From the NCBI RefSeq assembly GCF_008636115.1, contig NZ_QLZD01000018.1:38318-102317 (forward strand): a DNA stretch of 64,000 nucleotides, given 5' to 3'. Every line of letters starts with the position of its first letter. The first letter of the stretch is position 1. The notes beneath the pieces are model-generated. The model was not told where the DNA came from and did not search any database. It saw only the letters and a list, made by a program, of their open reading frames with translations. The translations under genes and the position numbers were made by a program. Positions 30,209-32,693 of the stretch are shown here, one piece after another. The DNA comes from Candidatus Tokpelaia sp. Lineage in GTDB: Bacteria; Pseudomonadota; Alphaproteobacteria; Rhizobiales; Rhizobiaceae.

Positions 30209-30418
30209 ATGACACGACTGCACTATTTGGCCAAAGAAATTGCCCGCCATGATACGCTCTATCACGGGCAGGATAATCCTGAAATTTCTGATGCGGAATA
30301 TGATGCCCTGCGCCGTGAATATGCTGATTTGCGCACCGCTTTTATGAAAGAGCGGTCGGCAGAATTCAAAGGTTTTGCCAGACGATTAGGCGCTATGGCA
30401 AAGAAAATTGCCGCCTGA
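30209..30418 (+). CDS. Stand-alone DNA ligase domain Ia (N-terminal fragment of LigA)
   Basis: 69 residues from ATG 30209, with GGAAAGG nine bases upstream and a good promoter. Residues about 7-45 match domain Ia of NAD-dependent ligases: EIARHDTLYHG, then DNPEISDAEYDALRREYADL. In known LigA enzymes the Tyr-His pair, the Asp and the Tyr-Asp of this domain bind the NMN half of NAD+ and are needed for self-adenylation; all five are present. The last 25 residues (MKERSAEFKGFARRLGAMAK) do not resemble LigA. The ligase body that follows at 30453 lacks this segment. Either the two act together as a split enzyme, or this is a relic of a rearrangement. Intact frame, promoter and ribosome site favour expression. 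Confidence 0.7.
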   Translation: MTRLHYLAKEIARHDTLYHGQDNPEISDAEYDALRREYADLRTAFMKERSAEFKGFARRLGAMAKKIAA

Positions 30419-30452
30419 GACGGTTTCCTTTTAGCGCCGGTGGTAGAGCTTT

Positions 30453-32693
30453 GTGGTCAACGCAGGAGATTTAAGCAAAGAAAAAGCGCAAGCGGAGCTG
30501 GAAGAGCTTTGCCGTGAGCTTGTTGCTGCCGGCAAAGCTAACGCCGGGGCGCTGTTTTATGCGGATCTGCCGCAGCGTTTTGCGGCTTTTGAGCAGCGCT
30601 TTCCCCACATTGAGCGACAATTTCCGGAACTGTCCGAGCTGGTCTTGGAGGTGCGGTCTTTTTTGACGCAGCGCGCGGCTAAAGATGCTGAATTATTGCA
30701 GGCCGATAGTGAGCTTGGCCGTGTCGGCGCGCCGGTTTCAGAAAAATTCGCCAAAATAGCGCATAAGCTGCCGATGCTGTCGCTGGATAATGCTTTTAGC
30801 GCGCAAGATGTTGAAGATTTTGTCGCCCGTATCCGCCGCTTTTTGCGCCTTAAAGCCGAGACAGAGCTTGACTTTACGGCTGAGCCGAAAATTGACGGCC
30901 TCTCTTTAGCACTGCGTTATGAGCATGGCGCGCTTGTTCAGGCGGCGACCCGCGGTGACGGCACGACCGGTGAAAATGTAACCAATAATGCCCGCACAAT
31001 AGCCGATATTCCCGCCCGCTTAAGCGGCAACCCGCCAGCCGTGCTGGAAGTGCGCGGCGAAATTTATATGAGCAAGGCCGATTTTGCCGCTTTAAATGCC
31101 GCACAGGCTTTGGCCGGCCTGCCGGGTTTCGCCAATCCGCGCAATGCGGCAGCCGGCAGTTTGCGGCAGTTAGATTCCCGCATTACGGCCGGGCGCAATT
31201 TACGTTTTTTCGCCTATGCCTGGGGGGAGGTAAGCCGCTTGCCGGCTGATACGCAATGGGGCATGATGGAAGCCTTCCGCTCTTACGGTTTTATCACCAA
31301 TCCGCTGACAAAATTATGTCGCAATGCGGCGGAATTGCTGGCGCAATATCGCCTGATTGAAGAAGGTCGCGCCGGGCTGGATTATGATATTGACGGCGTG
31401 GTTTATAAGGTTAATGCGCTGGCTTTGCAGCAGCGGCTGGGCTTTGTTTCACGCTCGCCGCGCTGGGCGATTGCGCATAAATTCCCGGCTGAGCGAGCTT
31501 TTACAGTTTTAAAATCTATTGATATTCAGGTGGGGCGCACCGGCGCACTCACCCCGGTGGCGCGGCTTGCTCCGGTTAATGTCGGCGGTGCCGTGGTGAC
31601 CAATGCGACCTTGCATAATGAGGATTATATTAAGGGTGTTGATTCGCATGGCGGAGAGTTGCGCCAGGGGCGCGATATTCGCGTTGGCGACACGGTTATT
31701 GTCCAGCGCGCCGGTGATGTGATTCCGCAAATTGTTGATATTGTGCCGGGCAAAAGGCCGGCAAAGACTGAGCCTTTTACCTTTCCTGCGCTTTGTCCTG
31801 TTTGCGGCAGCCATGCCGTGCGGGAAGAGGGAGAGGCAGTCTATCGCTGCATGGGCGGGCTGGTATGCCCGGCGCAGGCGGTTGAGCGCATACGCCATTT
31901 TGTTTCGCGCAATGCTTTTGATATTGAAGGCCTGGGTGAGGAAAGAGCAGAGTTTTTCTTCAAAGTGGAAGATAAAAATTTGCGTATCCGCAACCCGGCC
32001 GATATTTTCACTTTGCAGCAGCGGCAGAAAAATGCGTTGAAAAAGCTGGAAAATCTGGAGGGTTTTGGCACCAGATCGGCACAGAAAATTTATGATGCTA
32101 TTGATGCGCGGCGCAATATTGCTTTAAGCCGTTTTATTTATGCTTTGGGTATCCGCCATGTCGGCGAGGTCAATGCCCGCCGCCTGGCGCGCGCCTATCA
32201 CAATTATGCCGCTTTTGCCCAGGCTGCTGCGGCGGCAGAAAAGCCGCGCAACAAAAACATGGCGGAAAAGCCGCAGGACAAAGCAGATAAAGGCAATGCC
32301 GCCTGGCAGGTAATGGTGGCGGTGGAAGGCATTGGCGCGGTGGTGGCAGAAGCGGTAGTAGATTTTTATGCCGAAGAGCATAACCGCGCTGTGCTGGCCT
32401 CTCTGCTGGAGGAAATCACGGTAGAGAAAGAAGAGCCGCTTGTCAGCGCCGATTCACCGGTAGCCGGGCGGATTGTGGTTTTTACCGGCAGTCTGGAATA
32501 TATGTCGCGCGATGAAGCCAAAGCCATGGCCGAACGTTACGGCGCCAAACCGGCTTCCAGTGTTTCGAGCAAAACGGATTTGGTGGTGGCAGGAGCAAAA
32601 GCCGGGTCAAAGCTGGATAAAGCGCGGCAGTTTGGCATAAAAATAATTGATGAGCGGCAATGGCTCGATTTGCTGGGGGAAAAGCTGCTTTAA
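30453..32693 (+). CDS. ligA: NAD-dependent DNA ligase body, lacking the usual domain Ia core
   Basis: 746 residues from GTG 30453; an in-frame TAG at 30444 blocks any earlier start. Seals nicks in replication and repair. Residues 1-20 (LSKEKAQAELEEL) look like the first LigA helix, but about 20-100 are unlike LigA and lack the Tyr-His and DAEYD residues, which lie in the ORF just upstream. From about 105 the protein is normal: GAPVSEKFAKI, PMLSLDNAF, the adenylation site KIDG (Lys146), ATRGDGTTGENVTNN, FANPRNAAAGSLRQLDSRIT, the OB fold, the Cys4 zinc site (CPVC...C...CPAQ, about 448-475), helix-hairpin-helix repeats and a BRCT domain (about 665-746). An insert of Lys/Ala/Glu residues sits near 600. 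Without domain Ia, known ligases cannot react with NAD+. Confidence 0.92.
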   Translation: MVNAGDLSKEKAQAELEELCRELVAAGKANAGALFYADLPQRFAAFEQRFPHIERQFPELSELVLEVRSFLTQRAAKDAELLQADSELGRVGAPVSEKFAKIAHKLPMLSLDNAFSAQDVEDFVARIRRFLRLKAETELDFTAEPKIDGLSLALRYEHGALVQAATRGDGTTGENVTNNARTIADIPARLSGNPPAVLEVRGEIYMSKADFAALNAAQALAGLPGFANPRNAAAGSLRQLDSRITAGRNLRFFAYAWGEVSRLPADTQWGMMEAFRSYGFITNPLTKLCRNAAELLAQYRLIEEGRAGLDYDIDGVVYKVNALALQQRLGFVSRSPRWAIAHKFPAERAFTVLKSIDIQVGRTGALTPVARLAPVNVGGAVVTNATLHNEDYIKGVDSHGGELRQGRDIRVGDTVIVQRAGDVIPQIVDIVPGKRPAKTEPFTFPALCPVCGSHAVREEGEAVYRCMGGLVCPAQAVERIRHFVSRNAFDIEGLGEERAEFFFKVEDKNLRIRNPADIFTLQQRQKNALKKLENLEGFGTRSAQKIYDAIDARRNIALSRFIYALGIRHVGEVNARRLARAYHNYAAFAQAAAAAEKPRNKNMAEKPQDKADKGNAAWQVMVAVEGIGAVVAEAVVDFYAEEHNRAVLASLLEEITVEKEEPLVSADSPVAGRIVVFTGSLEYMSRDEAKAMAERYGAKPASSVSSKTDLVVAGAKAGSKLDKARQFGIKIIDERQWLDLLGEKLL

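What the first reader, a model, noticed from the sequence alone, without database searches (positions are those of the whole stretch)
30209..32693. NAD-dependent DNA ligase split into domain Ia and a body that lacks it
Seen: a 69-residue ORF (30209-30418) carries the LigA domain Ia residues LYH, D and DAEYD; the 746-residue ligase ORF that starts 35 bases after its stop lacks them and has about 80 unrelated residues in their place. An in-frame TAG at 30444 rules out an earlier start, and the two ORFs are in different frames with stops between, so one frameshift does not restore a single gene. A TTGCTT-17-TATAAA promoter and a GGAAAGG site precede the small ORF. Known: domain Ia binds the NMN part of NAD+ and is needed for self-adenylation of LigA, an essential enzyme. 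Inference: the two products assemble in trans, a split ligase not known to me, or another ligase has taken over.
Basis: partly seen in the sequence, partly recalled or inferred. Interest (0 to 1): 0.8.

Follow-up and report, generated by a model that had tools for sequence, protein, structure and literature searches.

The report
DNA ligase made of two proteins
In one bacterium, and in relatives sampled elsewhere, DNA ligase is encoded by two separate genes, a tiny one with the part that in other bacteria grips NAD+ and a large one with a worn-out copy of that part, so the two proteins are predicted to assemble into one working enzyme, which would be a new variant of how this essential enzyme is built.

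Summary
The split is real and shared. The 69-aa ORF (30209-30418) is a LigA domain Ia with the Tyr/Asp pair needed for NAD+ use; the 746-aa ORF (30453-32693) has the other LigA domains. A 5.8-billion-protein search found the pair again: three small/large pairs with matching longest-contig lengths, and six small-protein clusters with one conserved tail. In 108 of 109 related loci Ia is fused to the body (the other starts inside the gene), as in the best-matching genome. No second LigA and no ATP-dependent ligase was found in the genome. So Ia was probably duplicated; the free copy stayed intact, the attached one decayed. Tail and linker lengths differ together by seven residues between pairs (one event), which fits a helical docking interface. 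Most likely this is an obligate heterodimeric NAD+ ligase; assembly was not shown. T5-like phages have two-subunit NAD+ ligases cut elsewhere (Ia+adenylation+OB / Zn+HhH+BRCT), so this is a new variant, and the first cellular one known to me.

The parts
30209..30418 (+). small subunit ORF, 69 aa: free LigA domain Ia
   Evidence: (PF22745)
30260..30304 (+). codons 18-32 of the small ORF, Y18-H19 to D28-A-E-Y31-D32; Y31/D32 align with E. coli LigA Y35/D36
   Evidence: alignment; Y18, H19, D28, Y31, D32 invariant in 6 of 6 small proteins; role of Y35/D36 from passages of PMC8123306
30320..30415 (+). C-terminal tail of the small protein (residues 38-69), predicted to prolong the second helix (28-68)
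30194..30200 (+). GGAAAGG, possible ribosome-binding site 8 bases before the ATG
   Evidence: sequence
30135..30163 (+). weak promoter-like TTGCTT-17-TATAAA
   Evidence: sequence; not listed by the scan
30419..30452 (+). 34-base gap between the ORFs; holds TAG 30444-30446 in the large frame
30453..32693 (+). large subunit ORF, 746 aa, GTG start: LigA body (adenylation, OB, Zn, HhH, BRCT)
30468..30635 (+). degenerate second copy of domain Ia (residues 6-61 of the large protein) without the NMN-contact residues
30624..30704 (+). predicted long helix (residues 58-84) inserted between the dead Ia copy and the adenylation domain; its end runs into a low-confidence stretch (80-96)
30888..30899 (+). 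KIDG adenylation motif, K146 to G149
28254..29936 (+). recN, upstream neighbour; a recN-like gene also precedes the fused ligA in G087 (named there by eye)
   Evidence: TIGR00634 455 bits

Best explanation
The only DNA ligase found in this genome is encoded as two genes, and the 69-residue product most likely docks onto the 746-residue product to supply the NMN-binding domain Ia that the latter has lost, so that together they would form one working NAD+-dependent ligase. Shown: the two ORFs, their domains, the recurrence of both in relatives, an intact ligase body, the decay of the attached Ia copy, and no other ligase gene found. Inferred origin: domain Ia was duplicated in tandem, the upstream copy became a separate gene and kept the NMN site, and the downstream copy decayed and gained a helical insert. 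Inferred mechanism: the small protein binds the NMN half of NAD+ and closes over the adenylation domain while K146 is adenylated; it would not be needed for the two sealing steps, because Ia is dispensable once the enzyme is adenylated. Inferred interface: its prolonged second helix packs on the helical insert of the large protein.
For: (1) Same pair elsewhere: small homologues P0001-P0006 (6 of 26 hits carry the distinctive tail; of the other 20, 19 were read and look like N-terminal LigA pieces without it, P0020 was not read) and large homologues P0027-P0030 (4 of 390 candidates). Longest contigs have identical lengths for P0001/P0027 (217,940), P0002/P0029 (188,595) and P0003/P0030 (131,102). 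The split bodies are monophyletic (support 1.0; 52 rows, P0028 not included). (2) Six of six small proteins keep Y18, H19, D28, Y31 and D32 and end in AA at the same aligned place. (3) Body intact: the window differs at 4 of 214 columns that are at least 95% conserved in 48 fused relatives (those rows: median 1, maximum 21). (4) No rescue gene: one LigA body, one Nlig-Ia, no PF01068 in a genome rated 99.99% complete. (5) The attached Ia copy is recognisable in the window, P0029 and P0030 and has lost NMN-contact residues. (6) Matched lengths: small tail 37 and large span 54 in two pairs, 30 and 47 in the third, seven residues less in both subunits. (7) Ia is needed for adenylation, not for the reaction of pre-adenylated enzyme with DNA (PMC5052709, passages).
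Against: That the pair members lie on one contig is inferred from equal contig lengths; their adjacency was not seen. Large partners of P0004, P0005 and P0006 were not found, nor a small partner for P0028, and a search from P0030's N-terminus returned only P0030 and P0027. P0027 as recorded starts 33 residues later than the window's large protein. The matched length change is a single evolutionary event. Only 1 of 6 small tails is more amphipathic than 95% of its shuffles (P0005; P0001, one residue off the window's, is not: 37% score as high). dN/dS could not be computed, because the relatives' DNA was out of reach.
Confidence: 0.82

Rival explanations
1. The large protein works alone: its remodelled N-terminus handles NAD+ in a new way, and the small ORF is a leftover or has another role.
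For: The N-terminus is conserved among split relatives (66% and 52% identical in P0029 and P0030) and is homologous to Ia.
Against: Residues matching Y18, P24, D28 and D32 are lost in P0029 and P0030 (Y31 survives in P0029 only), while six of six small proteins keep all five. A leftover would not be expected to keep an intact NMN site and a constant end.
Confidence: 0.1
2. The two ORFs are joined at translation by frameshifting or bypassing into one chain.
For: The ORFs are 34 bases apart in order; the large protein keeps homology to the old N-terminus.
Against: A TGA and a TAG in different frames would both have to be passed; the small proteins end at the same aligned residues in six of six, as expected of a real C-terminus.
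Confidence: 0.04
3. Assembly error or decaying gene, with ligation done by another gene.
For: Related symbiont genomes can hold many pseudogenes (PMC12661939, passages).
Against: The split recurs in diverged relatives (large proteins 83-86% identical) with open frames; no other ligase was found in the genome.
Confidence: 0.03

Closest known systems
LigA, bacterial NAD+-dependent DNA ligase (single chain; PF22745, PF01653, PF03120, PF03119, PF12826, PF00533)
   Different: Ia is a separate protein, and the large chain carries a second, dead Ia copy plus a helical insert.
Two-subunit NAD+ ligase of T5-like phages (subunits A and B); solved example titled PR1 phage heterodimeric DNA ligase (9hu3, 9i5i)
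   Same: An NAD+ ligase made of two gene products. That the PR1 enzyme is of the T5 type was not checked; its chain A matches our adenylation and OB part (residues 143-430).
   Different: The phage cut lies after the OB domain: subunit A holds Ia, adenylation and OB, subunit B the Zn, HhH and BRCT part. Here the cut is at Ia, in a bacterial chromosome, in the sole ligase found.
Stand-alone Ia-like proteins of some phages (Arthrobacter phage DrSierra gp40)
   Same: A small protein with little but an Ia-like motif. The small ORF also matches phrog_6466, a 104-position phage family (E 8.2e-4); whether gp40 belongs to it was not tested.
   Different: 0 of 3 such phage records has an adenylation domain; here the partner body lies 34 bases downstream.

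Membership tests
LigA (NAD+-dependent DNA ligase) | adenylation (KxDG), OB, Zn finger, HhH and BRCT domains | tested here: met
   (PRK07956, 804 bits)
LigA (NAD+-dependent DNA ligase) | domain Ia with the NMN-contact residues | tested here: met
   met by the small ORF only; the attached copy lacks them
LigA (NAD+-dependent DNA ligase) | all domains on one chain | tested here: not met
LigA (NAD+-dependent DNA ligase) | uses NAD+ to seal nicks | not testable with these tools
   needs enzyme assay
T5-type two-subunit NAD+ ligase | subunit A = Ia + adenylation + OB, subunit B = Zn + HhH + BRCT | tested here: not met
   the cut lies at Ia; OB, Zn, HhH and BRCT are on one chain
T5-type two-subunit NAD+ ligase | phage gene | tested here: not met
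   next to recN and grouping with fused bacterial LigA; no phage match at 60% identity or more
Stand-alone phage Ia proteins | no adenylation domain in the same genome | tested here: not met
   body lies 34 bases downstream; 0 of 3 phage records had PF01653
ATP-dependent DNA ligase replacing LigA | PF01068 gene in the genome | tested here: not met
   none in G000; positive in 6 of 14 control genomes

The most novel reading that the evidence does not exclude
A cell has turned its essential, normally single-chain replicative ligase into an obligate heterodimer by duplicating domain Ia and letting the attached copy die, so that the NAD+-gripping jaw is a dissociable subunit held by a coevolved helix-on-helix interface; charging the enzyme with AMP and sealing DNA become physically separable and open to regulation by the amount of the small subunit.
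Probability: 0.5. Interest if true: 0.75.

Novelty: new variant of a known kind. Interest (0 to 1): 0.64.

Why it matters
LigA is essential in bacteria (recalled) and Ia is its NAD+-specific part and an inhibitor target (PMC8123306, passages). A natural two-part LigA would show that the Ia jaw can act as a separate subunit, would give a ready system for studying the open/closed cycle with a removable lid, and would be a clean case of an essential enzyme becoming a heterodimer by domain duplication and complementary loss.

Tried and rejected
Sequencing error or pseudogene: rejected because the pair recurs in relatives. Replacement ligase: none found. The HMM test was repeated with pieces of other long open frames because shuffles alone can be too lenient. 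Two other genomes whose LigA frame starts late were checked as possible splits: G071 has an unreadable (N) stretch there and G314's locus starts at that point of the gene; genomes whose LigA came out in pieces (such as G019, G021, G022, G032, G038, G040 and G104, G147, G277, G307) were not examined. Amphipathicity of the tails: 1 of 6 passes at 5%. A second protein search from P0030 residues 1-100 gave only P0030 and P0027 among 1376 candidates, so the partners of P0004-P0006 stay unknown and P0028/P0029 did not come up. The fold comparison of the large model listed no alignment starting before residue 94; this is inconclusive about the dead Ia copy. phrog_6466 was sought in 14 phage records: 8 of 14 matched, all within frames of 627-694 aa. 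Literature: searches for split or heterodimeric DNA ligase and related terms showed no paper on a split LigA or on the PR1 phage ligase among the titles and abstract starts listed; four of these lists were cut (15 of 144, 15 of 27, 10 of 11, 15 of 41) and most subscription papers are not in that library. Three papers on related symbiont genomes (PMC6044324, PMC12661939, PMC10949449) have no occurrence of ligA or 'DNA ligase' in their main text (passages only).

Full report
Observation. The small ORF 30209-30418 (69 aa) matches only the LigA N-terminal NAD+-binding domain (PF22745, E 2.7e-6), and the large ORF 30453-32693 (746 aa, GTG start) matches adenylation, OB, Zn, HhH and BRCT models but not PF22745. 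The frames differ; a TGA (30416) and a TAG (30444) lie between, and the gap is 34 bases. recN ends 272 bases upstream of the small ORF.

It is not an artefact. A search of 5.8 billion proteins with the small ORF gave 26 hits. Six clusters (P0001-P0006; 62, 69 or 78 aa) share its tail and all end in AA; of the other 20, 19 were read and look like N-terminal pieces of ordinary LigA, and P0020 was not read. The first 100 residues of the large ORF gave four hits among 390 candidates, all LigA bodies of 713-735 aa; P0028-P0030 have the same kind of N-terminus, while P0027 as recorded starts 33 residues later. Three small/large pairs have identical longest-contig lengths: P0001/P0027, P0002/P0029 and P0003/P0030. 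That they share a contig and lie side by side is inferred from this, not seen; P0028 has no listed small partner. The large proteins P0027-P0030 are 83-99% identical to the window's, the small ones P0002-P0006 61-86%.

Relatives are fused. Of 394 genomes of the family, 383 match the small ORF; in the listed part of the table (best matches; the rest were not printed) the window's genome alone has a short frame (76 aa), and the others have 705 aa or more. The 11 without a match were searched again with the large ORF: 9 of 11 have a body, some only in pieces, and G344 and G346 have none, so Ia was not settled for all of them. Among the 68 other genomes searched with the large ORF the best match is G087 (1.9 Mb, one contig): a fused LigA in a frame of 723 aa, 72% identical over query residues 79-742, that begins nine bases after the stop of what I read as recN. 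In a tree of 52 bodies the split ligases form one clade (support 1.0, stem 0.27) inside a group (0.974) with G087 and four loci of one genus with 1.0-1.5 Mb genomes.

What the new N-terminus is. A profile of 104 relatives' N-termini (Ia up to the adenylation domain) scores the first 80 residues of the large protein at 17.2 bits, P0029 (78 residues) at 17.0 and P0030 (82) at 21.1; none of 1000 shuffles of each reaches these values, nor does any of 9638 80-residue pieces of other long open frames (all six frames, so not all real proteins; pieces similar to LigA removed beforehand, 2543; best 11.8). The alignment keeps the first helix (LSKEKAQAELEEL) and the helix after the NMN loop (AFEQRFPHIE, close to AIEQRFPHLV in G087) but not the NMN loop; P0029 and P0030 have lost the matching Y18, P24, D28 and D32. 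So Ia exists twice: intact and free, attached and dead. Duplication followed by complementary loss is the simplest history; this is inference.

No other ligase. G000 has one LigA body, one Nlig-Ia and no PF01068; its completeness is listed as 99.99%. With LigA essential in bacteria (recalled), the split enzyme should be working.

Mechanism. In the alignment, Y31 and D32 of the small protein fall on E. [quoted passage not shown] Ia binds the NMN half, swings by almost 180 degrees to close over the adenylation domain, and is not needed once the enzyme is adenylated (PMC5052709, passages). A detachable Ia could therefore do its job in trans. The small model has helices 3-20 and 28-68 (mean pLDDT 81), the second prolonged by the conserved tail. 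Between fixed anchors the large proteins have 54 residues in the window, P0027, P0028 and P0029 and 47 in P0030; the small tails have 37 in P0001 and P0002 and 30 in P0003 (and in P0004-P0006, whose partners are unknown). Both differ by exactly seven residues in the same pair, two turns of a helix, as expected if the tail and the inserted helix pack along each other. This is one event, and hydrophobic-moment tests passed at 5% for only 1 of 6 tails and for neither of two inserts, so it is a lead.

Against what is known. T5-like phages have a two-subunit NAD+ ligase: subunit A has Ia, adenylation and OB and subunit B the rest. Structures titled PR1 phage heterodimeric DNA ligase exist (9hu3, 9i5i); I found no paper on them. 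Stand-alone Ia-like proteins occur in some phages without an adenylation domain. Neither is this arrangement. Searches of the open-access library showed no report of a split cellular LigA in the rows listed; coverage is partial and four lists were cut.

Verdict. A conserved two-gene LigA, most likely an obligate heterodimer: a new variant of a known kind (two-subunit NAD+ ligase), with a new cut, a dead duplicate domain and a cellular host.

Noticed in passing
L184:2953-3255; L186:2953-3258; L185:2932-3204: Arthrobacter phages DrSierra gp40 and Pixelle gp43 (both annotated DNA ligase) and a Xanthomonas phage Pfeifenkraut ORF are 90-101 aa Ia-like proteins in phages with no adenylation domain found in the record; they might act on the host's LigA.
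   Followed up: partly
window 33753-34784 and 34819-35874: Two adjacent transporter genes, 64% identical over 303 residues, with sub-cut-off matches to drug/metabolite-type transporter models: a tandem duplication downstream of the ligase.
   Followed up: partly
window 32742-33548: A 268-aa ORF directly after the ligase with no NCBIfam match and only sub-threshold Pfam matches.
   Followed up: no
P0006 (78 aa, longest contig 84,099 bases): The most diverged small subunit has an N-terminal extension; its large partner was not found, so its large chain may be more diverged still.
   Followed up: partly
window 29937-30208: 272 bases separate recN from the small ORF, against nine bases between the recN-like gene and ligA in G087, so sequence may have been gained here along with the new gene start.
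   Followed up: no
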